64,000 nt of DNA, from contig JAJTDF010000026.1 of assembly GCA_021294835.1 (NCBI GenBank), positions 39,677 through 103,676 of the forward strand, given 5' to 3'. This DNA comes from Planctomycetaceae bacterium. Its GTDB lineage: Bacteria > Planctomycetota > Phycisphaerae > Phycisphaerales > UBA1924. The translations under genes and the position numbers were made by a program. The notes under the pieces were generated by a model. The model had not been told where the DNA came from. It worked only from the letters and a program-made list of their open reading frames with translations, and ran no database searches. Positions 49,616 to 64,000 of the stretch are shown here, piece by piece (position 1 is the stretch's first letter; every line of letters starts with the position of its first letter).

Positions 49616-51166
49616 ATGGCTGACCACAGCGTTTCATCTGGGGCGGTTTTTCAGGCCGGCAACAAGATCATCATGGAGGGGATCACGTTCGACGACGTGC
49701 TGCTGCTGCCTCGCGCCAGTGCCATCGTCCCCGGCGATGCCGACACCAGCACCTTCCTCACCCCGAGCATCCGGCTGAACATCCCGCTGATCTCCGCCCC
49801 GATGGACACGGTCACCGAGGCCGATCTGGCCATCGGCCTGGCGCAGGAGGGCGGCATCGGGTTCATCCACCGCAACCTGCCCATCGAGGCCCAAGCCCGC
49901 GAGGTGCAGAAGGTCAAGCGGTCGGCCAACGGCGTGATCCTGGATCCCAAGACCCTCTCGCCGGATGACACCGTCGCCACCGCCCGGCAACTCATGCAGC
50001 GCTACAAGGTTTCCGGCTTCCCGGTCACCGAGGGCGGGGCCGCCAAGGGCAAGGTGCTGGGCATCCTCACCCGGCGTGACTTGAAGTTCGTGGAACGCGA
50101 CCAGACCCCCGTCAAGGAGGTCATGACCCGCGATGAACTGATCACCGCCGCCCCCGGCACCACGCTGGAGCAGGCCGAGATTATCCTCAGCAAGAACAAG
50201 GTCGAGAAGCTGCTGCTGGTTGACGAGCAGTTCCGCCTGGCGGGCATGGTCACCATGCGTGACATCGACCGCCTCGGCCAGTTCCCCAAGGCCACCGTGG
50301 ACTCGCGGGGCCGCCTGCGTTGCGGCGCTGCCTGCGGCGTGGACCAGTACGAGCGGGTCGAGGCCCTGATGGCCGCCGAGGTGGACGTGCTGGTGGTTGA
50401 CACCTCGCACGGCCACTCTGAGAACGTGCTGCGGACGGTCCGCGAGATCAAGAAGCGGCACCGCATCGAAGTGGTCGCCGGCAACGTGGCCACCGCCGCC
50501 GCCGCCAAGGCCCTGGTTGAAGCCGGGGCGGATGCGGTGAAGGTCGGCATCGGGCCGGGTTCCATCTGCACCACCCGCGTGGTCACCGGCGTGGGCGTGC
50601 CCCAGTTGTCGGCCATCCTCAGCGTCGCCGAGGCCCTGGAGGGCACCGGCCGCTCGGTCATCGCTGACGGCGGCATCCGCCAGTCGGGCGACATCGCCAA
50701 GGCCATCGCCGCGGGTGCGCACGCGGTGATGATGGGCTCGCTGTTCGCCGGCCTGGAGGAGAGCCCGGGCGAACTGGTCATCCGCCAGGGCCGCCGGTAC
50801 AAGAGCTACCGGGGCATGGGCTCGGAAGGCGCCATGCGGGCCGGTTCCAGCGACCGCTACGGCCAGCCCGCCTCCAGCACCTCTGAAGCCCGGGGCATGA
50901 GCGCCGAGGGCCGGCAGATCAAGTACGTTCCCGAGGGCGTGGAAGGTCTGGTCGCCTACCGAGGGCCGCTGGCCGAGTTCGTCTACCAGATGGTCGGCGG
51001 GCTTCGGGCCTCGATGGGCTACCTCGGCTGCAAGACCATCCCCGAGATCCGGCGTGAGGCCCGCTTCTGCAAGGTCAGCGTCGCCACCGTGGTGGAGAAC
51101 CACCCGCACGACATCAAGATCACCAAAGAGAGCCCGAACTACCTGGTGGAGAAGTCCGGGGAGTGA
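49616..51166 (+). CDS. guaB: IMP dehydrogenase
   Basis: [69 protein letters not shown] pair; [20 protein letters not shown]. Confidence 0.97.
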
Positions 51167-51343
51167 TGGGCCGCGGGCCCAGCGGTTCGGGCGGGGCGGG
51201 GTTTGGTCGGTCGGTCGCTGCGCTGCCGGGCGGGTGGGCTGCGCCCTGTTCAAGTGCAAAACCCGCGGTTTATGCGTTGGCGGGCGGGGCCGACGGCTCC
51301 AACCGGGGCCATTCCCGCTCGCCGCCCCGCTAAACTGGCCGCG

Positions 51344-53172
51344 ATGTCGTACACCGTTCTTGCCCGCCGCTACCGCTCGCGTGACTTTGGCGAACTCGTC
51401 GGCCAGAACGCCGTCGCCAAGACCCTGCAGACCGCCATCGCCGAGGACCGGGTGGCCCACGCGTACCTGTTCACCGGCACGCGGGGCGTCGGCAAGACGT
51501 CGACCGCCCGCATCTTCGCCAACGCGCTGAACAACCCCAAAGGCGACCAGGCGATCACCGATGCGATCATGCAGGGGCGCGACACCGACGTGATCGAGAT
51601 CGACGCGGCCAGCAACTCCAAAGTGGAAGAGGCCCGCGAACTGATCGCCAACGCCGTCTACCGGCCAATGCGGGGCATCAAGAAGATCTACATCATCGAC
51701 GAGTGTCACATGCTCTCCACGGCGGCGTTCAACGCGCTGCTGAAGACCATGGAAGAGCCGCCGGCCCACGTGGTGTTCATCCTGTGCACCACCGAGACGC
51801 ACAAGGTGCCGGCGACCATCCAGTCACGCTGCCAGCGGTTCGACTTCCGCAACATCCCCACCGCCGAGATCGCCCGCCACCTGGGCGCCGTGCTGAAGGA
51901 AGAGAAGCGCGAGGCGACGCCGGAACTGCTGCACGCGGTGGCCCGGCTGGCCGCCGGCTCGATGCGCGACGCCCTCTCGCTGATGGACCGGCTGCTGGCC
52001 GGCACCGACAAGAAGCTGACCGTTCCGATGCTGGAGGAACTGCTCGGCCTGCCTGAGGCGCAGCTGGTCTCCACGGTGATCGACGCCATCAGCGCCGGTG
52101 ACGCCGGGGCGGCGCTCAAGGCGGCCGGGCGGCTGCTGGGCCGCGGCACCTCGGGCGACACGCTGCTGGGCAGCATGGCCGAGCGCTTCCGCGACCTGCT
52201 GGTGATCGCCCAGTGCGGCCCCGATCCGGAGTTGCTGGACCTGCCGCCGGAGGTGCTGGCCGAGGCCGAGGCCCAGGCCCGCAAGTTTGACCCTGCGGCG
52301 CTGGTGTACAACATCGCGTTGTGCGACTCGGTGGCCAAGAGCGCCAAGAACTCGGCGTTCCCGCGGGCGGTGATCGACGCGGCCATCTCGCGGATGGCCA
52401 TGGCCGAACGCTTTGCGTCCGCGGGCGTGGTGGCCCGGGCGCCGGTGGCGGTTGGTGCGGGTGCCCCGGTAAAAAAAGCCTGACGCCGGCGGGATCGCCT
52501 GACGATGGGCCCAGTTTCGCGGCCCTCGTGCAGCGTTCAGCGCCGGCGGCAACCGTGGAACCGGTGGTCAGCGTTCGCGCTGTCAGCGGTCCGGCTGCGC
52601 CGGCGACGAGCACACCTGCGCCCGCTTCGCCCGCTCCCGCGGCCCCGCGTCCGGTTGCGCCTGCTGATACTGCGGTCCCGAGCGGCGGGTTGACTGTCGA
52701 CGCGGTGTGGGCCCGCGTGATGGCGGTGGCGGAGCGGTCGGCGAGCATTCGGCTGGTGGTGCGGTCCATGCGGCTGCTCTCGCTGGATGAATCGGGCGGG
52801 CGCGCGGTGGTGAGTTGTCCGGCGGTGCAGATGAGCCTGGTGCAGGGCGTGATGGCCCGGCCGCTGGCGGAGATCTTCAAGGAGGCGACCGGCCGGGCGT
52901 GGACGCTGGTGGTGCAGGAGGGCGAGCCGCCCCCCGCGCCGGCCCCGGCGATGGCTGTGGCAGCGTCTGCGGCGGCGTTTGCAGCGGGAGCGGGTCCGCG
53001 GAACGCAGCGCCCGGCGGCCCGGCTGCCGCTGCGTCGCCTATGCCGGCTCCGCAGATGGGCGGTTCGCCGGCGGCGGACCATCCGCTGGTGCGCAAGGCG
53101 GCGCAGGCGTTCAACGGGCGGGTGACCAAGATCCGGCCTCGGGCCAAGGGCCCGGAGGGCACGGGCAACTGA
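51344..53172 (+). CDS. dnaX: DNA polymerase III gamma/tau; gamma ends 52483, tau by -1 frameshift at A7 (52471-52477) ends 53172
   Basis: YTVLARRYRSRDFGELVGQNAVAKTLQTAIAEDRVAHAYLFTGTRGVGKTSTARIFA; GTA AAA AAA GCC TGA in frame 0; -1 frame continues with tau-like LTVDAVWARVMAVAERSASIRLVVRSMRLLS. Confidence 0.9.
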
Positions 53173-53231
53173 CCGGTGGGCGGGGAATGTGCGAGTGATT
53201 TGGGCCGAGTCCGGCCTCTGGAGGATGCGAC

Positions 53232-53609
53232 GTGTTTGACCAGTTGAAGATGATGGGCGCTGTGGCGAACCTGATGAAGAACAAGGAGGCCATCGCCGAG
53301 GCGGCGGCCCGCGTGCAGGAGAACCTGGAGAAGCGGGTGGTCACTGTCGAGGCTCCGGACAAGTCCATCAGCGTGCAGGTGAACGGCAAGCTGGCGGTGC
53401 TGGAGATTCGCCTCGCCGATCGCGTGGTGAAGGATGCGGCGAGCAACGCCGAGACGCAGGCGAAGATGGAGAAGCTGATCGTCGGCGCTGTGAACGCCGC
53501 CATGGCGCGGGCCAAAGAGATCATTCAGGAAGAGATCAGCACCGAGACGCAGAAGCTGGGGCTGGGCGATCTGGGCGGGCTGAGTTCGCTGGGCAACCTG
53601 CTGAAGTGA
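53232..53609 (+). CDS. YbaB/EbfC-type nucleoid-associated protein
   Basis: Downstream of dnaX; VTVEAPDKSISVQVNGKLAVLEIRLADRVV...LIVGAVNAAMARAKEIIQEEI. Confidence 0.82.
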   Translation: MFDQLKMMGAVANLMKNKEAIAEAAARVQENLEKRVVTVEAPDKSISVQVNGKLAVLEIRLADRVVKDAASNAETQAKMEKLIVGAVNAAMARAKEIIQEEISTETQKLGLGDLGGLSSLGNLLK

Positions 53610-53645
53610 GTTCTCCTTTCCCACCGATGCCGGAGGCCCGGGCTG

Positions 53646-55490
53646 ATGGATGCGCAAGCGCTGGTGCTGGCGGCACTGGACGAGATCGACGCCGACCACT
53701 TCGCCCAGGCCGAGGCGCTGTGCCGGCGCGTGCTCAAGCACCTCCCGAATGAGCCGCACGCGCACCGGGTGCTGTGCAATGCGCTGCTGCTGCAGGGGCG
53801 GGCCGAGCAGGCGAGGTTCCACGGGCGGCGGGCGGCGGCGCTGGCGCCGGCGGAGTCGCCGTTCTACTACAGCCTCGGGCGGCTGATGCGCAAACTGGGC
53901 TCGCCTGATGAAGTGGCCGGGCTGATGGCCAAGGCGTGGGAGCTGGACCGCTCGCACCCGGACCCGTGCATCGCGCAGGTGGAGGCGCTGCTGTGGGGGC
54001 AGCGGTTCATAGAGGCGGTGCGGGTTGGGGCTGAGGGGCTGGCGGTGCATCCGGGGTCGGCGGAGTTGGCGGTGAACCGGTCGGTGGCGTTGCTGAACCT
54101 GGGGCGGGCTGATGAGGCGGTGGACACGCTGCGGGCGGCGCGTCGGCTGGCGCCGCACCATGCGACGCTGATGGGCATTCTGGCCAGCACGCTGAACTAC
54201 GACGACCGGGCGACGGCGGCGGAGGTGCTGGCGGTGCATGCCGAGCATGGGCGGCTGCGGGCGATTGAGGAAGGGGCGGTGGGGGTGGGCCGGCCGAGGC
54301 TGGAGTGGCGGGGTGGGGCGGATGGCGGAGAGCGGCCGTTGCGGGTGGTGTTCTTGTCGCCGGATTTTCGGCTGCACTCGGTGGGGTTCTTTGCGTTGCC
54401 GCTGATTGAGCGGCTGGACCGCACGCGGGTGGAGCCGATCCTGTACCACACCGATCCCATGTACGACGAGGTCTCGGAACGGTTCGAGGCGTTGGCGGCC
54501 CGCTGGCGGCACGTGCCCTTGCATGGGGATGCGGCAATTGCCGAGATGATCCGAGCGGACCAGGCGGACGTGGTGGTGGAACTGGCGGGGCTGACCGGCG
54601 GGCACCGGCTGGGCGTGGTGGCGAGGCGGCCGGCGCCGGTGCAGGTGACCTGGCTGGGCTACCCGAACGTGACGGGTCTGGCGGCGATGGATGCGCGGCT
54701 GGTGGATGGGCTGACCGACCCGGTCGAGGCGGATGGGCTGGGGGCGAGCGCGGGTGCGGAGCGGTTGGTGCGGCTGTCGGGTGACGGGCCGTTCCTGGTG
54801 TATCGGCCGCCGACTGGAGCGCCGGAGGTCGCGGCGGCGCCGTGTCTGGCGAGCGGGCGGATCACCTTCGGGTGCTTTGGCGTGCACAAGAAGCTGACGC
54901 CGACGACGCTGGCGCTGTGGGCGGCGGTGCTGCGGGCGGTGCCGGACTCGGTGCTGCTGCTGAAGAACGCGGCGCTTGGTCTGCCTCGGGTGCGGGTGGG
55001 CCCGCCGAGTGAGGCGGAGGCGAAGAACGAGACGGTGCGCGACCTGCGGGCAAGGCTGGCGGCGCTGGGCATCGGGCCGGAGCGGGTGCGGCTGCTGGGC
55101 GTGACGGCGGAGGTGGCCGACCACCTGCGGGCCTATGGAGAGGTGGACATTGCGCTGGACACGTTCCCGTATCACGGGACGACGACGACGTGCGAGGCGA
55201 TGCACATGGGCGTGCCGACGGTGTGCCGCGTGGGGCGGACGCACGCGTCGCGGGTGGGGCTGAGCCTGCTGAGCGCGGTGGGGCTGGGCGAGTTGGCGGC
55301 CGAGAGCGACGAGGGGTTTGTGGCGGCGGCGGTGCGGTTGGCGGCGGATCGGCCGGCGCTGGGGGCGTTGCGTTCGGGGCTGCGGGCGAGGCTGGCGGGC
55401 AGTTCGCTGCGGGATGAGGCGGGGTTCGCGGCCCGGTTTACGGCGGCGCTGGAGGGTGTGGTTCGGGACGTTGCTGCGCAGCAGGAATGA
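53646..55490 (+). CDS. TPR plus O-GlcNAc transferase-like (GT41) glycosyltransferase
   Basis: TPR N-terminus; RVVFLSPDFRLHSVGFFALPLIERLDR...ADVVVELAGLTGGHRLGVVARRPAPVQVTWLGYPNVTGLAAMDARLVD...TFPYHGTTTTCEAMHMGVPTVCRVG. Confidence 0.9.
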   Translation: MDAQALVLAALDEIDADHFAQAEALCRRVLKHLPNEPHAHRVLCNALLLQGRAEQARFHGRRAAALAPAESPFYYSLGRLMRKLGSPDEVAGLMAKAWELDRSHPDPCIAQVEALLWGQRFIEAVRVGAEGLAVHPGSAELAVNRSVALLNLGRADEAVDTLRAARRLAPHHATLMGILASTLNYDDRATAAEVLAVHAEHGRLRAIEEGAVGVGRPRLEWRGGADGGERPLRVVFLSPDFRLHSVGFFALPLIERLDRTRVEPILYHTDPMYDEVSERFEALAARWRHVPLHGDAAIAEMIRADQADVVVELAGLTGGHRLGVVARRPAPVQVTWLGYPNVTGLAAMDARLVDGLTDPVEADGLGASAGAERLVRLSGDGPFLVYRPPTGAPEVAAAPCLASGRITFGCFGVHKKLTPTTLALWAAVLRAVPDSVLLLKNAALGLPRVRVGPPSEAEAKNETVRDLRARLAALGIGPERVRLLGVTAEVADHLRAYGEVDIALDTFPYHGTTTTCEAMHMGVPTVCRVGRTHASRVGLSLLSAVGLGELAAESDEGFVAAAVRLAADRPALGALRSGLRARLAGSSLRDEAGFAARFTAALEGVVRDVAAQQE

Positions 55491-55514
55491 GCGGAGTTTG
55501 GCCTGGAAGTCGCG

Positions 55515-56771
55515 TCAGGTCTTCATGGACGTGAGCATGGCGATGGCCATGGGCAGCAGGGCGAGCACGGGGACGAAGACGGCGGCTTCGACCGGGAGGC
55601 CGGGCAGCGGCGCGGCGGTGCCGAGGATGCTGCCGAGCAGGGCGCCGATGGAGATGGGGGCCGCCTTGAGGGTCTGGGCGACCATGTTGCGGGGCTCGCG
55701 GGTGAGGAAGAAGGGGATGGCGATCAGCAGGCTGAGGAAGACGCAGACGATGACCGCGACGCGGCCCCAGCCGATGCGGAGGAGTTGCTCGCGCAGTTGC
55801 GGGCTGGTGGCCGGGGAGGCGACGGCCTCGCGGATCTGCAGCCAGGAGAGGCTTTGGCTGAAGGTGCGGTAGTGGGCGACTTTGAGCGCGGTGGGGTCCA
55901 GGTCGGTGACCAGACGGTCGGGCGCTCGGGCGGTGGCGGAGGCGCTGGCGCCGGCTTGTGAGCCGGGCGCATCGACCAGGGCCAGGCGGGTGACAACGGG
56001 GGCGTGCAACTTCCAGTAGCCAGCAGTGGCGGGGGCTGCGGGTGCGGCGGCTGGGGCGGGCGGGGCGGAGGGCTTGGCGGAGTTGGCCGGGTTGGCGGGG
56101 GTGGAGATGAAGGTGGCTTTGTCGGCGGAGATACGGCGGATGAGGCGGCCGGCGGTGTCGCTCTCCCAGATGTGGGGCTTGATCAGTTCACCGGCGCCGT
56201 CTGCCGCGTTGGGATCAAACCGTTGGGCCATGATCAGCCGGCCCTGGCTGTCGGGCGTGATGGGGACGGGGAAGCTGGAGAAGTCACGCCGGGTGATTTC
56301 GGTGTTGCTGCGGAGCAGCAGCGGGGCGATGCGGGGGATGACCACCTCTTGATTGATGATCTGCAGCGTGATCATCGCTGCGGCGACCAGCAGCACCGGG
56401 CGGATGAGCCGCGTGAGCGAGATGCCCCCGGCGAGGGCGGCGACGATCTCGCGATGGCGGACGAGCTGGGCGAAGGTGAAGCCCATGGCGCCGATGAGCA
56501 CGATGCCGACGAGGTAGTTGTACAACTGGAGGAGGCGGGGCCACCAGAGATCCGCAGCGAGGATGACGGCGGTGAGGGCCCGCTTGATGGGGCCGGCGCT
56601 GGATTGCCCCTGCTCGCGCAGGGTGGCCTCGGCCACCCCGAGGAAGCGCTGGAGGTTGAGCGAGGCGTCCACCAGCACCACAAACGAACCGAGCAGCACG
56701 AGCAGCACGGCGATGTTGATGAGGAACTGGCGGGCGATGTAACGGTCGAGGATGGACAGGGAGAAGGGCAA
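55515..56771 (-). CDS. LptF/LptG-family permease (YjgP/YjgQ)
   Basis: SILDRYIARQFLINIAVLLVLLGSFVVLVD; multiple TM; TTG start abutting an AT-rich repeat. Confidence 0.83.
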   Translation of the reverse strand: MPFSLSILDRYIARQFLINIAVLLVLLGSFVVLVDASLNLQRFLGVAEATLREQGQSSAGPIKRALTAVILAADLWWPRLLQLYNYLVGIVLIGAMGFTFAQLVRHREIVAALAGGISLTRLIRPVLLVAAAMITLQIINQEVVIPRIAPLLLRSNTEITRRDFSSFPVPITPDSQGRLIMAQRFDPNAADGAGELIKPHIWESDTAGRLIRRISADKATFISTPANPANSAKPSAPPAPAAAPAAPATAGYWKLHAPVVTRLALVDAPGSQAGASASATARAPDRLVTDLDPTALKVAHYRTFSQSLSWLQIREAVASPATSPQLREQLLRIGWGRVAVIVCVFLSLLIAIPFFLTREPRNMVAQTLKAAPISIGALLGSILGTAAPLPGLPVEAAVFVPVLALLPMAIAMLTSMKT

Positions 56772-57284
56772 ATTTCAAAATTTCAAAATGACAAGATGGC
56801 AAAATGAAGACAGGCGCGGGGGAAGGGGTGGGCGGTGGGGGTTGGCGGGGGAGAGGGTTAGGCCCTCCCCGAGGAAGTGGCGGGACGGGTGTGTGTGGAG
56901 AAGAGAAGGCGGGGTGGGGTGGGGCTTTGTACGGGTGAGCACCGCTCGCCAAGGATCGAGGGTAGGGGGTGTGTGTGGAAAAGTCGGCGGTGGGGGTGGT
57001 GGGGTGGGTTGGGTAGTAAGTAGATGTGTGGGTGGTTGGCGTTGGCCATGGGTTCTTGTGGGGGGGTGTGTGTGGATAAGTGGGGCGTCGGGACTCCGGG
57101 ATGGCATGGGGGCGCCTGGCCAGAGGCGGTAGGGGGGCTGGCGATGAGGGCGCGCGGAATGGGTGGGGTTTCGGGGACATCCGTACATGTACCTTACCGC
57201 AAAGTGGCTGGAGGTGCAAGGGGGAGGGTTGGATTTTGTGGGGGTGAGGATCGGTCGCGGTCCGCTGAGGCAGGCGGTCGCTGG

Positions 57285-57310
57285 TGCCGGGGAACCTGGG
57301 TTCCCCGGCA
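57285..57310. repeat. Near-perfect palindrome / strong hairpin
   Basis: TGCCGGGGAACC-TG-GGTTCCCCGGCA. Confidence 0.85.
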
Positions 57311-57429
57311 GCCCCTCCGGGGGAGGCCGGCGGTTCGGGAAGGTGGCGGGTGCAGTCAGGTGCCGCCGGCGAGTTCATCGCGGGGATGATCCGCCGGCTG
57401 ATGACGCTGACGGGCGTCAGGCACCGGTC

Positions 57430-57650
57430 CATCCGCCCTGACGGCGCCGTGGAAGAGCGCCTTCGTGGAGAACTTCCACTGTCGGCTGCGGGGCGAACCG
57501 CTGGCCGCGGAAGTGTCTGCGGACTCTCGCGCAGCCGAGGCGTTGGCGGCAAGGTGGCAGGAGTAGTGCAGCCACCGTTGCCGGCACTTGTCGCTGAAGG
57601 ACGTCCCACCGGCGGTGTTCGCTGTGACGCTGCCTGGGGCTGCACGCCGC
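57430..57650 (+). pseudogene. IS3-family transposase C-terminal remnant
   Basis: Frame from 57453: KSAFVENFHCRLRGEPLAAEVSADSRAAEALAARWQE*CSHRCRHLSLKDVPPAVFA, resembling IS3 OrfB end with an in-frame stop. Confidence 0.6.
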
Positions 57651-57812
57651 CCGCCGGACCGGCCAGCGACAGCCACCCTCCCCGTCATCCTCAACTCTCA
57701 TCGGGGCTAGTGCAGCAAAGGGAGGCAGGTCAACTGGCGGTGAGCGCTTCGTGCTGCGGTCCCACCATTCACACCCTATTGTTCCAAGGATCCACTGTGA
57801 AAAGGAGCTTAC

Positions 57813-58661
57813 GTGCCACACACCGCCGAGATCAGCCGCGCGACCCCGACCTGCTTCCTATTCCTTATTGATCAATCGGGATCGATGGCTGATCCCATCG
57901 CATCCGCCGAGCCATCCTCCGGTCGTTCCAAGGCGCAATTCGTTGCTGACGCTCTGAACTCGCTTCTTCAGGGCCTGGTCCTCCGCTGTGCACGTGAGGA
58001 GGGGATCAGAGGCTACTTCGACGTGGGCGTGATCGGATACGGCAACTCTGTGGGCCCCGCGCTCGCCGGAGCCTTGGCGGGGCGGGAGTTGGTGTCGATC
58101 ACGGACTTGGGCAACTACCCCGCCCGCCTTGAAGAGCGGACGAGAAAGGTCGAAGACGGGGTGGGCGGGCTGATCGATCAGAAGATCAAGAAGCCGATTT
58201 GGATCGATCCGGTCGCCAACGGCGGCACGCCGATGTGCGAAGCTTTCCGCCAGGCCATCTCGTTGCTCAAGGCTTGGATCGGATCACATCCGCAGTCGTT
58301 TCCGCCAAGCGTCATCCACATCACCGACGGTGAGTCGAGCGATGGCGATCCACTGGGCCTCATGCGAGAGGTCACCAGCCTCGCGACGTCGGATGGCAAC
58401 TGCCTGCTCTATAACTTCCACATCTCCTCGAACGCGGCGGCGAAGGAGATTGTGTTCGCGGATTCGTTGGCGGGGCTCCCGGATCAGTACGCCACGCTGC
58501 TCTTCAATGGCGCGAGTCCGCTGATCCCAGGTGTCCGCAACGAAGTGCAGCGGCAGGGCATGGCAGTCTCGGAGGGGGCCCGGGGGTTCTTGATGAACGC
58601 TCAGACCACGACGATCATCCAGGCCATGGATATCGGCACCAAACCGAGCGCCCTTCGCTAA
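57813..58661 (+). CDS. vWA domain protein, TerY/YegL-like
   Basis: TCFLFLIDQSGSMADPI...NGGTPMCEAFRQAISLLKAWI...PPSVIHITDGESSDGDP. Confidence 0.88.
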   Translation: MPHTAEISRATPTCFLFLIDQSGSMADPIASAEPSSGRSKAQFVADALNSLLQGLVLRCAREEGIRGYFDVGVIGYGNSVGPALAGALAGRELVSITDLGNYPARLEERTRKVEDGVGGLIDQKIKKPIWIDPVANGGTPMCEAFRQAISLLKAWIGSHPQSFPPSVIHITDGESSDGDPLGLMREVTSLATSDGNCLLYNFHISSNAAAKEIVFADSLAGLPDQYATLLFNGASPLIPGVRNEVQRQGMAVSEGARGFLMNAQTTTIIQAMDIGTKPSALR

Positions 58662-58663
58662 AC

Positions 58664-59455
58664 ATGGAAGTTTCTACGGCGGCAATCGCGATCCCCAAGC
58701 GAGGTAACGAGACGATGGGATCGGACGACGCGCTCGCTGCATCTTGCGAGGGGGAGTCGCTCGTCCTGCGGCCCGGGGAAGTTATGCGCTTCGCTGTCGC
58801 CGACGGAGCCAGCGGCTCCATTTACTCCGGCTACTGGGCGGCGATTCTCGCGCGATCCTTTGTGCAAGGCGATCTCTCTGGCGAGGTGTCACAGTGGCCG
58901 TTTGGCCGCATGGCGAGCGAGTGGAGGCACTCTGCCACGGGTCGGCTCGCTGAATCGCACGGCGACGCAATTCCTTGGTACCTCCTGGAGAAGCTTGACG
59001 CATCCGCCCAGGCTGCGCTCCTAGGCGTGGTTCTTGAATTGCCTGCAGACTCCCCAAGTGCAATGTGGAACGCATGCGCGATCGGAGATGCTTGCCTCGC
59101 TCGCATTAGCCCTGGCCGCCCCAGCATCACCTTCCCGATCGATAACCCGGAAGCGTTCGGCAACGACCCACCGCTCATCCCCGCAGAGGACGGAGCTGGC
59201 AGCATTCTTTCGGAAGCGCAGTATGACGGAGGGGTCATCTGGCCTGGGGACAGTCTCTATCTGCTCACCGACGCTGTTGCTGCGTGGTTCCTTCGCGAGA
59301 GTGCCGCGAGCGGCGAGCCTTGGCTGCAACTCGACGAGGTTCTCGACGCTCAATGTGAGGCCGCAGCCAAAGTCTGGGCCGATGGCGAGAGACACGCGGG
59401 CCGCATGAAGAATGACGATATCACCGTGCTACGCTTGAGGTTTGGACCTGGCTGA
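58664..59455 (+). CDS. PP2C-like protein phosphatase, YegK-like
   Basis: RFAVADGASGSIYSGYWAAILARSFVQ...GDSLYLLTDAVAAWFL...MKNDDITVLRLRF. Confidence 0.82.
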   Translation: MEVSTAAIAIPKRGNETMGSDDALAASCEGESLVLRPGEVMRFAVADGASGSIYSGYWAAILARSFVQGDLSGEVSQWPFGRMASEWRHSATGRLAESHGDAIPWYLLEKLDASAQAALLGVVLELPADSPSAMWNACAIGDACLARISPGRPSITFPIDNPEAFGNDPPLIPAEDGAGSILSEAQYDGGVIWPGDSLYLLTDAVAAWFLRESAASGEPWLQLDEVLDAQCEAAAKVWADGERHAGRMKNDDITVLRLRFGPG

Positions 59456-62127
59456 TGCTCTGGCCACAGGACATCGACTACCTCAACGCTCTGCAGAACC
59501 CGGCCACGGCGTTCAACGATCCTGCCCTGCGGCAAGGAACGGTCGAGATCGATCCGCTCGGCATGCCAAAGGCCCGCTCTGGCAACTTCGCGATTGTCTT
59601 CAAGCTTGAGACGGGCGGGCATGCCTGGGCTATCAGATGCTTTAAGCGTGAGTTGTACGATCGCGAGCAGCGCTATGCCGCGATCAGCGATCACCTACAG
59701 CGCCTCGCGGTACCGTACCTCAGTCGGTTTGAGTACGAGGCTCACGGCATCAGGATTGCGAAGGCTTGGTACCCCATCCTGAAGATGGAGTGGGTATCGG
59801 GCGATCTCTTGCGGCCTTGGGTCGAGCGGCATCTCCACCAGCCGGACCAGTTGAGGGCACTTGCTTCCCGCTTCGTTGAAGCAGCTGCGGCGCTGCGCCG
59901 GGGCGGTATCGGGCATGGGGATCTGCAGCACGGCAACATCGTGATCGTGAACGATCAACCTCGGTTCATCGACTACGACTCGATGTTCGTTCCCGCGCTT
60001 TCCGGGCGAGACTGCCCTGAGTTGGGTCACGAGAACTATCAGCACCCGGGACGGACTGAACGCCACTTCGGACCGTTCATGGATGATTTTTCTATCTGGG
60101 TGATCTACGTGTCGCTCATCGCCCTGAGCTTCGATGCGAGTCTGTGGCAGAGGTACTCGGTGAACGAAGAGGCGATGCTCTTCCGGCGTCCGGATCTCAA
60201 GGATCCCCGAAACTCGAACCTGTTCGCGGAGCTGGCACGTGCGAGGGACCCTCGCCTTCGCGTTCTATCACAGTCACTCCTTGGCCTCCTCAGCCGTCCG
60301 CCGGACGGTTTGCCCCCGTTGGGCGACAGCCTGGCTCTCCCGATCGGGGAGATCGTGGTGGCGTGTCCGGCGTGCCACCAGAGGCTCCGTGTCCCTGTGC
60401 AAGCTGGAACTGCGGCGATTCGCTGCCCTGCGTGCAAGCACGAGCATGAGTGGGTACAAGGTCCAGCGCCGGGCAAGCAAGCCGTGACGGGAGGCAATGA
60501 GTGGTGGCGCCATGATCGGCAGCCGCAGCCGACAGCCCCCGCCGGTGGAAGTCAGGCTGGTCCGTACATCACTGTCGATGCCTCCCTTTACCAGCCCGCG
60601 CCTGCGACAGACGCGACGTGGGTGCTCGAGTCGCTTGCTGAGGGCGCGACGATCCAACGCGCCGGGTACGGCAAGTGCTTTGTCGCAGACCGATGGCTGC
60701 TCTTTCTGACGCTGTTGGCAGCGTTAGCGCTACTCGGCACGACGCTGGCTAGCAGCAGCACTGAGTGGATTCTCGCCAGAGGTGCTCTCGCTGCTGCGGT
60801 TCTGGCGACCAATCCCTTGCTGTGGGTGATCCGTTATCGCCACCATCCGGCCTACGCGCGGAGGCGCGAGCATCAGCGGAGAGTCGACGAACTATCGGGC
60901 AGAGTCAAGGACATTGAGCGGCAGCGGGCGGAGTGCGGTCGCATCCAGAAGATCCGCCAGAAGGACATATCCCGGCGCGACGCCGGGTTGGCTAGGGAGC
61001 TGAAGGCGAAACAGAAACAGCTTGCAAGAGCGATTCGAGCCGACTGTAAGCCGATAGAAAAGGATATCCAGCGCATGAAGTCGAGGCTCTTGAAGCTTCA
61101 GTCTCATGTGCAGAGGGATGTGGACAGGGCTCTCCGTCTGATCGATGGCAGGTTGGCGATGACGCGAAGGGTGCTGGCGGATCTTCCGGCCCAGCGAGCA
61201 CGCGAACTTGCACTGATTGACCAGCGCGAGCAAGCTGAGGTCAAGCGAACCGAGGCACCGCTGACGCGACGGCTTGAAAGTCTTCGGCAGTCGCTGAGCA
61301 CGGCGGTCGCCGCCGAAGACGCCGAGGCTGCGCGAGTCTTTCAAGCGTATTTCAAGACCTGCGTAGAGGACGAGTTGCGTCGCAATGCCATCGGCACTGC
61401 GAGCATTCCTGGCATCGGCACCGGCCTCCAACAGCGGCTTATCGATGCCGGCATCCGCACGGCCCTAGACGTGGACGCATCTCGCATCTACGGCGTGAGC
61501 GGATTTGGTCCGCATCGGGTCTCGCAAGTCTTGGCGTGGCGCAGCGGCCTCTTGGTCCGAGTGATGCAGTCGGTCAAGGATCTTCCCGCGGCGGAGCGGC
61601 GTCGCATCGCCGATGAGTGGTCCGCCAAGCGCCAGCGGTGGAGCGACGAGCTCGCGCAGCTTGAAGCGGGTCTCGCCCCCGAGCTTGCACAGGTGAGGGA
61701 AGCCTACGCGAGGCAGAAGGCGGCTGTCGCAACCACCTGCTCCGTTCGAGAGCGAGACATGTTGCGAGATATCGCCCAGATTGAGGCTGATCGGGAGGCA
61801 CAGGAGCGGGACATACGGGGGCGACGCTCAAGCGAGGTGCTTGCGTTGCAAGGGCAGATTGACGCGAAGGAAGGTCAGTTGAAGTTGACGCGAGAGTCGG
61901 TGGAGCTGTCGTTCGCTAACGCGATCGCCGAAATCGAGAAGCAGCGGTTGGCGCTCGTCCAAGAGGCAGCGTCGGTGGGCAAACACCTAGAAGAAAGGCT
62001 AGCGGAGATTCGCAGTGGCGAAGGTGAACTTGCATGGACGCGAGCGCGGCTGGACGTAGACGGCGATGCGATTGCCGAGCTGAGCTTCAGGGGCTATGTC
62101 CGCGGGGTATTCGGACGCTCTCTGTAG
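59455..62127 (+). CDS. Protein kinase-like protein with Zn ribbon, TM, coiled coil and helix-hairpin-helix, YegI-like
   Basis: GGIGHGDLQHGNIVIVNDQPRFIDYDSMF; CPACHQRLRVPVQAGTAAIRCPACKHEHEW; TM LLFLTLLAALALLGTTLA; IPGIGTGLQQRLIDAGIRTALDVDASRIYGVSGFGPHRVSQVLAWR. Confidence 0.88.
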   Translation: MLWPQDIDYLNALQNPATAFNDPALRQGTVEIDPLGMPKARSGNFAIVFKLETGGHAWAIRCFKRELYDREQRYAAISDHLQRLAVPYLSRFEYEAHGIRIAKAWYPILKMEWVSGDLLRPWVERHLHQPDQLRALASRFVEAAAALRRGGIGHGDLQHGNIVIVNDQPRFIDYDSMFVPALSGRDCPELGHENYQHPGRTERHFGPFMDDFSIWVIYVSLIALSFDASLWQRYSVNEEAMLFRRPDLKDPRNSNLFAELARARDPRLRVLSQSLLGLLSRPPDGLPPLGDSLALPIGEIVVACPACHQRLRVPVQAGTAAIRCPACKHEHEWVQGPAPGKQAVTGGNEWWRHDRQPQPTAPAGGSQAGPYITVDASLYQPAPATDATWVLESLAEGATIQRAGYGKCFVADRWLLFLTLLAALALLGTTLASSSTEWILARGALAAAVLATNPLLWVIRYRHHPAYARRREHQRRVDELSGRVKDIERQRAECGRIQKIRQKDISRRDAGLARELKAKQKQLARAIRADCKPIEKDIQRMKSRLLKLQSHVQRDVDRALRLIDGRLAMTRRVLADLPAQRARELALIDQREQAEVKRTEAPLTRRLESLRQSLSTAVAAEDAEAARVFQAYFKTCVEDELRRNAIGTASIPGIGTGLQQRLIDAGIRTALDVDASRIYGVSGFGPHRVSQVLAWRSGLLVRVMQSVKDLPAAERRRIADEWSAKRQRWSDELAQLEAGLAPELAQVREAYARQKAAVATTCSVRERDMLRDIAQIEADREAQERDIRGRRSSEVLALQGQIDAKEGQLKLTRESVELSFANAIAEIEKQRLALVQEAASVGKHLEERLAEIRSGEGELAWTRARLDVDGDAIAELSFRGYVRGVFGRSL

Positions 62128-62332
62128 AGTCGCCAAAGTCGATTGTGGTTACTGCGAGCCTGTTGGCCATTGAGTCCTGCGTGTTGGCGAGATGGACGAC
62201 GCTGAAGCTGGGCTGGCCGATGACCTCTAGGAGGCGAGACGAACCGATTGGTGAGCCCCGGGACTCGTTGCCGCCGCGGGAGCTCATCGGCAGGGTCGGC
62301 GGCCGGTGTGTGGACGCGAGGGGTGTGATTCG

Positions 62333-62396
62333 CCTCCCCCGCTGGGGGAGGGGGGCGCAGGGGGCCTGTTTTCCAGGGGTGCAAAGCCACCCCTGG
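62333..62396. repeat. Two adjacent perfect hairpins
   Basis: CCTCCCCC-GCT-GGGGGAGG and CCAGGGGTG-CAAAGC-CACCCCTGG. Confidence 0.8.
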
Positions 62397-62415
62397 CAAC
62401 ACTCGCGCATCCCGC

Positions 62416-62540
62416 TGGGATGCGAAGGCGGGGAGGCGGGAAGGCAGGGATCGCAGATCTCAGATTTGAGAGGGCAGATGGGAGTGGGATGCGAAGGCGG
62501 GGAGGCCGGATCTCAGATTTGAGATTTGAGAGGGCGGAGG
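62416..62540. repeat. Imperfect tandem duplication containing AT-rich palindromic segments
   Basis: Two copies of TGGGATGCGAAGGCGGGGAGGC...ATCTCAGATTTGAG...AGGGCRGA starting at 62416 and 62485. Confidence 0.8.
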
Positions 62541-62574
62541 GGCGCGGGGGCGGCCGTGGGTGGGTGCCGCGGCT

Positions 62575-63894
62575 TCAGCGGTCGGCGAGGAGGGCTTCGG
62601 CGGCGAGGCGGCCGGTACGCATGGCGCCGTCGATGCTGGCGGTGGCGAAGAGGTCGCCGGCGCGGTAGAGGCCGTTGGCGAGTTTGAGGGGGAGTTGGGG
62701 TTGGGTGCCCAGGGTGTAGCAGGGTGGGGTCTGGTCGGGCAGGGCGCGGTCGATGCGGTAGGTTCGCAGGTGGGTCCAGGAGTCGGCGATGGGGCCGAAC
62801 CAGGTGCGGAGTTGGGCGCGGACGGCGACGTGGGGTTCGCCGGGGTCGGCGCCGCCCCGGCCGATGACCGAGGCGGCGATGAGGTGGCGGCCGGGTGGCG
62901 CGTAGGCCTCGGAGACGCTGGACATGCACACGACGTTGGCGGTGCGGAGCGGGGCGTCGGCGGTGGGGGGGATCTCGCCATCGAGCAGCAGCAGGGGCTG
63001 ATCAAGCGGGGCCGGGGGGACGCCGTGGCCGGCGAAGTAGACGGTGGTGACGGTGCGCCAGGTGCGCGGGCGCGGGGCGGGGCCGGAGTTTGGTGCTGTG
63101 CCAGTCGCGGCCAGACGGTCATCAGTCGGGGCGGCGTTGACGATGGCGGAGCAGGGGAGGTCGACCTCGCCGGCGGGGGAGGCGAGGCGGACGACGCCGG
63201 GCTCGATGCCGAGGACGCGGGAGTGGAGGCGGAGGACGCCATCGGGGAGGCCGGCGGCGATCTGGTCAGCGATGCGGCCCATGCCCAGGCGGGGGACGGC
63301 GGCGTCGCCCATGGAGAACATGCGGAAGACGAACTCCATCATGCGGCTGGAGGAGCCGAGGGAGAGGTCGAAGAAGATGCCGCCGAAGAAGGGGCGGAAG
63401 AAGCGGGCGATCATGGTGTCGGAGAAGCCCTCGGCCTGGAGGGCGGTGAGGATGGGACGCTCGGGCCGGGCGAAGATCTCTTCGACGGTGGCCTTCTGGA
63501 GCCGGGAGCGCATGGAGCCGACGCGGAGTTTGTCGGCCAGGGAGCCGACCTTGGCCAAGGCGCCGTCGAGGATGGCCGAGGGTTTGCGCCAGGGATCGAG
63601 CAGGGTGTGCATGCGGCCCTGAAAGGCGACGGCGGCGCCGGGGAGGAAGGGGCGGAAGTCGAGGGCTTTGTAGTCGAGGGCCTGGGCGGCTTCGGGGTAG
63701 GCGGTGAGGAAGACCTGGAAGCCGCGATCCAGGCGGAAGCCGTCGAGTTCGTCGGTGCGGGCGCGGCCGCCGACGCCGTCGGAGGCTTCAAGGACAATGA
63801 CAGGGACGCCGGCACGGTGGAGCGTGCGGGCGCAGGTGAGGCCGGCGAGTCCGGCGCCGATGACAACAACAGGGAGCGCGTGATCGAGCGGCAT
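62575..63894 (-). CDS. NAD(P)/FAD-dependent oxidoreductase (amine oxidase/phytoene desaturase-like)
   Basis: PVVVIGAGLAGLTCARTLHRAGVPVIVLEASDGVGGRARTDELDGFRLDRGFQVFL. Confidence 0.92.
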   Translation of the reverse strand: MPLDHALPVVVIGAGLAGLTCARTLHRAGVPVIVLEASDGVGGRARTDELDGFRLDRGFQVFLTAYPEAAQALDYKALDFRPFLPGAAVAFQGRMHTLLDPWRKPSAILDGALAKVGSLADKLRVGSMRSRLQKATVEEIFARPERPILTALQAEGFSDTMIARFFRPFFGGIFFDLSLGSSSRMMEFVFRMFSMGDAAVPRLGMGRIADQIAAGLPDGVLRLHSRVLGIEPGVVRLASPAGEVDLPCSAIVNAAPTDDRLAATGTAPNSGPAPRPRTWRTVTTVYFAGHGVPPAPLDQPLLLLDGEIPPTADAPLRTANVVCMSSVSEAYAPPGRHLIAASVIGRGGADPGEPHVAVRAQLRTWFGPIADSWTHLRTYRIDRALPDQTPPCYTLGTQPQLPLKLANGLYRAGDLFATASIDGAMRTGRLAAEALLADR

Positions 63895-64000
63895 GGGAAA
63901 GTGGGCGGACGCGGCTGACGCGGTGGCGGGGCTGAAGTGGGGCCGTCCGTTTGCGAGCGTAGCGGGGTGGCGAGGCGGGTTGCCAGTTGGGGGTGGGGGT

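What the first reader, a model, noticed from the sequence alone, without database searches (positions are those of the whole stretch)
57813..62127. TerY-P / yegLKI-like phosphorylation triad with a composite membrane kinase
Seen: three tightly packed genes (vWA, PP2C, kinase; kinase start overlaps the PP2C end). The kinase has HGDLQHGN and DYD in place of DFG, a CPxC...CPxC ribbon, TM segments, a long coiled coil and an HhH (IPGIGTGLQQRLIDAGI). Knowledge: vWA-PP2C-kinase triads were described as TerY-P by Anantharaman, Iyer and Aravind, and E. coli yegL-yegK-yegI has the same set. Function is poorly defined; stress or defence roles are proposed. Codon usage looks less GC-biased than in neighbours (qualitative impression), suggesting horizontal acquisition.
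Basis: partly seen in the sequence, partly recalled or inferred. Interest (0 to 1): 0.72.

Follow-up and report, generated by a model that had tools for sequence, protein, structure and literature searches.

The report
Phosphorylation triad with chimeric membrane kinase
Three neighbouring bacterial genes encode a known type of anti-phage phosphorylation switch (a metal-binding adaptor, a phosphatase and a kinase), but the kinase carries a membrane and nucleic-acid-binding tail otherwise seen in a separate kinase family (E. coli YegI), so the triad is a rare hybrid of two known designs.

Summary
The triad is real. TerY (57813-58661), PP2C (58664-59455) and a kinase (59455-62127) match PADLOC TerY (4.8e-97), PP2C (3e-17) and the core of STK_OB (1.4e-75). 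MIDAS, PP2C and most kinase catalytic residues are retained; the kinase's ATP lysine is arginine throughout the TerY-P clade. The triad is compositionally foreign (GC3 0.68-0.78, against 0.79-0.94 in neighbours), TerY is missing from 24 same-genus or same-family genomes, and about 1% of sampled planctomycetes carry TerY. Horizontal acquisition is likely, though no mobile element or empty site was found.

Trees separate them with full support, and the window's core lies in the TerY-P clade. The kinase tail differs: its tandem HhH, behind a TM hairpin and a helical region, is homologous to YegI's (hhalign 99.3%, E 3.5e-20). The kinase is thus a mosaic of a TerY-P core and a YegI-type tail. One other case was found among 393 phylum genomes (G339, its sister in the core tree). 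Other TerY-P kinases carry WD40, OB-like or TM tails.

Likely function: membrane-tethered, nucleic-acid-triggered anti-phage signalling (inferred). New variant of a known kind.

The parts
57813..58661 (+). TerY-type vWA protein, 282 aa, complete MIDAS (D20-S22-S24, T139, D172)
   Evidence: PADLOC TerY 4.8e-97 over the full profile; MIDAS residues invariant in alignment A9; AAGGAG upstream of GTG
58664..59455 (+). PP2C-type Ser/Thr phosphatase, 263 aa, metal-binding Asp residues retained
   Evidence: PADLOC PP2C 3.1e-17; D47, G48, D142, D203, D251, D252 invariant in A8, E. coli PphC included; no Pfam hit at E<=1
59455..62127 (+). Composite kinase, 890 aa
   Evidence: ORF; starts on the last base of the PP2C stop codon
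59455..60309 (+). TerY-P-clade kinase core (aa 1-285): WAIRCF (Arg at the VAIK Lys position), HGDLQHGN, DYD
   Evidence: PADLOC STK_OB 1.4e-75, profile 3-268 of 562; tree 100/100
60364..60435 (+). CPAC..CPAC zinc ribbon (aa 304-327)
   Evidence: sequence; weak Pfam zinc-ribbon matches below cut-off
60679..60816 (+). two transmembrane segments, probably a hairpin (aa 409-454)
   Evidence: Kyte-Doolittle 1.99 for the first segment; the second read from sequence
60850..61374 (+). long charged helical region (aa 466-640), coiled coil likely in its first part
   Evidence: 8 Pro/Gly in aa 460-640; heptad signal p about 0.01 for aa 466-560
61399..61548 (+). tandem helix-hairpin-helix (aa 649-698), YegI-type
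   Evidence: hhalign against the YegI tails 99.3%, E 3.5e-20; PDB and Pfam HhH profiles
61570..62040 (+). second charged helical region (aa 706-862)
   Evidence: composition only; heptad periodicity not significant

Best explanation
This is a horizontally acquired TerY-P phosphorylation triad whose kinase has a YegI-type tail (TM hairpin, helical spacer, tandem HhH) in place of the OB-fold described for the tested stand-alone TerY-P kinases. Proposed mechanism: the kinase sits in the inner membrane with core and HhH both cytoplasmic. The HhH meets nucleic acid near the membrane, for example incoming phage DNA, and binding or clustering through the helical region switches on Ser/Thr phosphorylation. 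TerY uses its MIDAS metal site to assemble the complex or present targets, and PP2C resets or restrains the kinase; the result is phage-triggered phosphorylation that blocks infection. Shown here: gene identity, residue conservation, the core/tail mosaic, foreign composition and patchy distribution. Inferred: membrane location, nucleic-acid binding, activation by phage, defence output.
For: PADLOC hits to all three TerY-P components; operon packing; conserved MIDAS and PP2C sites; core in the TerY-P clade 100/100 and sister to G339 96/95; tail homologous to YegI's; HhH profiles from DNA- and RNA-binding proteins. Compositional foreignness and absence of TerY from 24 same-genus or same-family genomes. 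Published: OB-fold TerY-P modules are stand-alone anti-phage systems (PMC11090510, citing Gao 2020); TerY-P protects against T7-like phages (PMC7699616) and Autographiviridae with most cells surviving (PMC10889362); YegI is a membrane-bound, autophosphorylating Ser/Thr kinase dephosphorylated by PphC (PMC13232886, citing Rajagopalan and Dworkin).
Against: No experiment on any HhH-tailed TerY-P kinase was found. The neighbours are housekeeping genes (IMPDH, dnaX, ybaB, lptFG, amine oxidase), not a defence island, and no transposase, integrase or tRNA was seen. The Arg at the ATP-lysine position leaves kinase activity open. YegI, the tail's namesake, has no known phage role in what was read.
Confidence: 0.5

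Rival explanations
1. A YegI-like envelope or nucleic-acid stress switch with no phage role: the tail sets the input, and the triad controls a housekeeping response through reversible Ser/Thr phosphorylation.
For: The tail is YegI-type; YegI/PphC form a kinase-phosphatase pair with no assigned condition (PMC13232886); the genomic setting is housekeeping.
Against: Core, TerY and PP2C all match the TerY-P models, and core and vWA fall in the TerY-P clade, the clade tested for defence; patchy, compositionally foreign distribution fits defence better than housekeeping.
Confidence: 0.28
2. A metal-sensing or tellurite-resistance switch, as first hypothesised for TerY-P, in which the vWA MIDAS reads metal and the kinase/phosphatase pair transmits it.
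For: Complete MIDAS; published hypothesis for TerY-P (Anantharaman 2012, as cited in PMC11090510).
Against: In the neighbouring ORFs examined no other ter gene or metal-efflux gene was seen; the tail points to nucleic acid rather than metal.
Confidence: 0.12
3. On origin only (a separate question from function): ancestral rather than chimeric. The TM-HhH tail was present in the common ancestor of TerY-P and YegI kinases, and the other TerY-P kinases lost or replaced it.
For: Both clades are vWA-PP2C-kinase triads, and the tail is homologous in both.
Against: The tail was found in only 2 TerY-P kinases, which are sisters in the core tree, so one capture is simple. This is weak: most YegI-type kinases here were found through the tail, so that they carry it is not independent evidence, and only about 72 tail columns are shared, too few for a tail tree.
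Confidence: 0.3

Closest known systems
TerY-P anti-phage triad (PADLOC TerY, PP2C, STK_OB)
   Same: all three components, catalytic and MIDAS residues, kinase-core and vWA clade
   Different: the kinase lacks the second half of the STK_OB model (matches 3-268 of 562) and has a TM-HhH tail with a CPAC..CPAC ribbon
E. coli YegL-PphC-YegI
   Same: triad plan; kinase tail with TM, helical region and tandem HhH; CxxC element before the TM
   Different: separate vWA and kinase-core clades (100/100); YegI keeps Lys and GDVNQ where the window has Arg and HGDLQHGN
CoCoNuT-associated TerY-P with a zinc-ribbon kinase (PMC11090510)
   Same: TerY-P triad with a zinc ribbon C-terminal to the kinase
   Different: no CoCoNuT nuclease, helicase or GTPase genes seen in the neighbouring ORFs examined; extra TM-HhH tail
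G339 triad (unnamed planctomycete genome)
   Same: TerY-P core plus TM-HhH tail; sister in the core tree
   Different: 770 aa, no CxxC ribbon

Membership tests
TerY-P | TerY-type vWA protein | tested here: met
   PADLOC TerY 4.8e-97, full profile; MIDAS complete
TerY-P | PP2C phosphatase in the operon | tested here: met
   PADLOC PP2C 3.1e-17; metal-site Asp residues kept
TerY-P | TerY-P-clade kinase core | tested here: met
   STK_OB 1.4e-75 over its first half; tree 100/100
TerY-P, tested stand-alone form | kinase with C-terminal OB-fold | tested here: not met
   profile match ends at 268 of 562; tail is TM-HhH. TerY-P kinases with a zinc ribbon instead are also filed as TerY-P (PMC11090510), so this excludes only the OB-fold form
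TerY-P | anti-phage activity | not testable with these tools
   needs phage challenge
YegLKI (YegL-PphC-YegI) | YegI-clade kinase core | tested here: not met
   separate clades, 100/100; hhalign between the two cores covers only 98 columns, E 7e-8
YegLKI (YegL-PphC-YegI) | tandem-HhH tail behind TM segments | tested here: met
   hhalign 99.3%, E 3.5e-20; TM segments at the same place
YegLKI (YegL-PphC-YegI) | YegL-type vWA | tested here: not met
   vWA tree splits the window from YegL types with 100/100

The most novel reading that the evidence does not exclude
A TerY-P defence kinase that captured a YegI-type tail and so became a membrane-stationed sensor of nucleic acid entering the cell, showing that defence triads change their trigger by exchanging kinase tails (OB-fold, zinc ribbon, WD40, TPR-like, TM-HhH).
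Probability: 0.22. Interest if true: 0.6.

Novelty: new variant of a known kind. Interest (0 to 1): 0.36.

Why it matters
What TerY-P triads sense is unknown in what was read here. A core shared across the clade with exchangeable tails (WD40, OB-like, TM, TM-HhH in the loci read here) suggests that the tail sets the trigger, which tail swaps could test directly. It also ties a defence system to YegI, an E. coli kinase for which the inducing condition has not been found (PMC13232886).

Tried and rejected
Structure prediction of the HhH segment from a single sequence gave mean pLDDT 50.6 and is uninformative. The genome-contig scan did not complete and was then counted as used, so the census rests on planctomycete samples and the plasmid, phage and viral collections. 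No relative was found in viral contigs or phage records. The empty-site test was not clean: in the same-genus genome G001 the two flanking genes lie on different contigs. Anantharaman 2012 and the two Rajagopalan papers are not held, so they are cited only as other papers describe them; whether HhH-tailed TerY-P kinases were noted in 2012 could not be checked. Alignment A3 was cut at wrong ends and replaced by A4. Read as 'TerY-P and yegLKI are one system': rejected by the trees.

Full report
Observation. TerY and PP2C are separated by 2 bases, and the PP2C stop and kinase start overlap by one base. PADLOC models identify TerY (4.8e-97, full length), PP2C (3.1e-17) and the STK_OB core (1.4e-75, positions 3-268 of 562). 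Pfam is weak or silent on all three: VWA_2 0.0005, PP2C none, Pkinase 0.00012, all below cut-off.

Residues. MIDAS residues are invariant in the vWA alignment and the PP2C metal-site residues in the phosphatase alignment. In the kinase, HGDLQHGN and DYD are kept across the four TerY-P kinases aligned. The position of the VAIK lysine is arginine (W/F-A-x-R-C-F) in all 7 TerY-P kinases compared, whereas the 7 YegI-type kinases keep lysine. This is a clade feature, not damage in this copy; its effect on catalysis is unknown.

Core and tail have different kin. Kinase-core and vWA trees each separate TerY-P from YegI types with 100/100 support. In the core tree the window kinase is sister to the G339 kinase (96/95); the vWA tree leaves that grouping open. 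The tail is YegI-like: the tandem HhH aligns with E. coli YegI and three planctomycete YegI-type kinases (hhalign 99.3%, E 3.5e-20), and tblastn of the whole kinase matches the G403 YegI-type kinase over residues 605-798 (6e-12). HhH identity is supported by PDB and Pfam profiles. The homology statement rests on the HhH; the TM segments and helical region agree in order and place only.

Census. In 393 phylum genomes the tail profile at E<=1e-6 found 11 places in 10 genomes. The nine that were read are kinases: 7 with YegI-type cores (G400 twice, G274, G403, G224, G362, G337) and 2 with TerY-P cores (window, G339). Complete vWA-PP2C-kinase triads were read for both G400 loci, G274 and G337; the neighbours of G403, G224 and G362 were not fully worked out, and the weak hits in G172 and G256 were not examined. 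Other TerY-P kinases carry WD40 (G035 by Pfam; G041 by reading), an OB-like tail (Calothrix plasmid, by reading), a TM and TPR-like tail (Acaryochloris plasmid) or a short TM tail (G521). TerY itself is found in 5 of 393 phylum genomes, one of them a weak partial match; TerY-P cores in 3 of 398 class genomes. None of 28 other genomes in the class of G339 has a TerY-P core.

Origin. GC3 and codon scores set the triad apart from its neighbours, GC falls to about 0.62 over the block, and the one same-genus and 23 same-family genomes searched lack TerY. Horizontal acquisition is the best reading. No transposase, integrase or tRNA was seen in the ORFs examined, Rfam gave nothing for 50000-64000, and the flanking genes are on different contigs in G001, so no insertion boundary is shown.

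Function. TerY-P modules protect against phages in published tests (PMC7699616; PMC10889362; PMC11090510 for the OB-fold form). YegI is a membrane-bound autophosphorylating kinase reversed by PphC (PMC13232886). Combining the two gives the proposed model: a membrane-tethered, nucleic-acid-triggered defence kinase. Every functional step is inferred.

Noticed in passing
62440-62545: Two 53-nt direct repeats (72% alike) just downstream of the kinase gene, with ATCTCAGATTTGAGA; this 15-mer occurs 3 times in the genome assembly (2 here, 1 on contig 42) and 4 times in the window with up to 2 mismatches against 0.03 expected by chance.
   Followed up: partly
56772-57812: A 1 kb stretch between lptFG and TerY with three copies of a 17-nt GGGTGTGTGTGGA-type repeat at 80 and 97 bp spacing; no gene assigned.
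   Followed up: no
L044 5761-7995 and L043 5095 onward: TerY-P kinases with WD40 beta-propeller tails in two planctomycete genomes (G035 by Pfam, G041 by reading), a tail type not named in the TerY-P passages read here.
   Followed up: partly
TerY-P kinases in the window, L042, L043, L044, L049, L050, L075: Arginine replaces the ATP-binding lysine of the VAIK motif throughout the TerY-P kinases compared, while YegI types keep lysine.
   Followed up: partly
L072 5552-9748 and L046 3976-7434: Genome G400 holds two YegI-type triads (vWA, PP2C, HhH-tailed kinase) at separate places.
   Followed up: no
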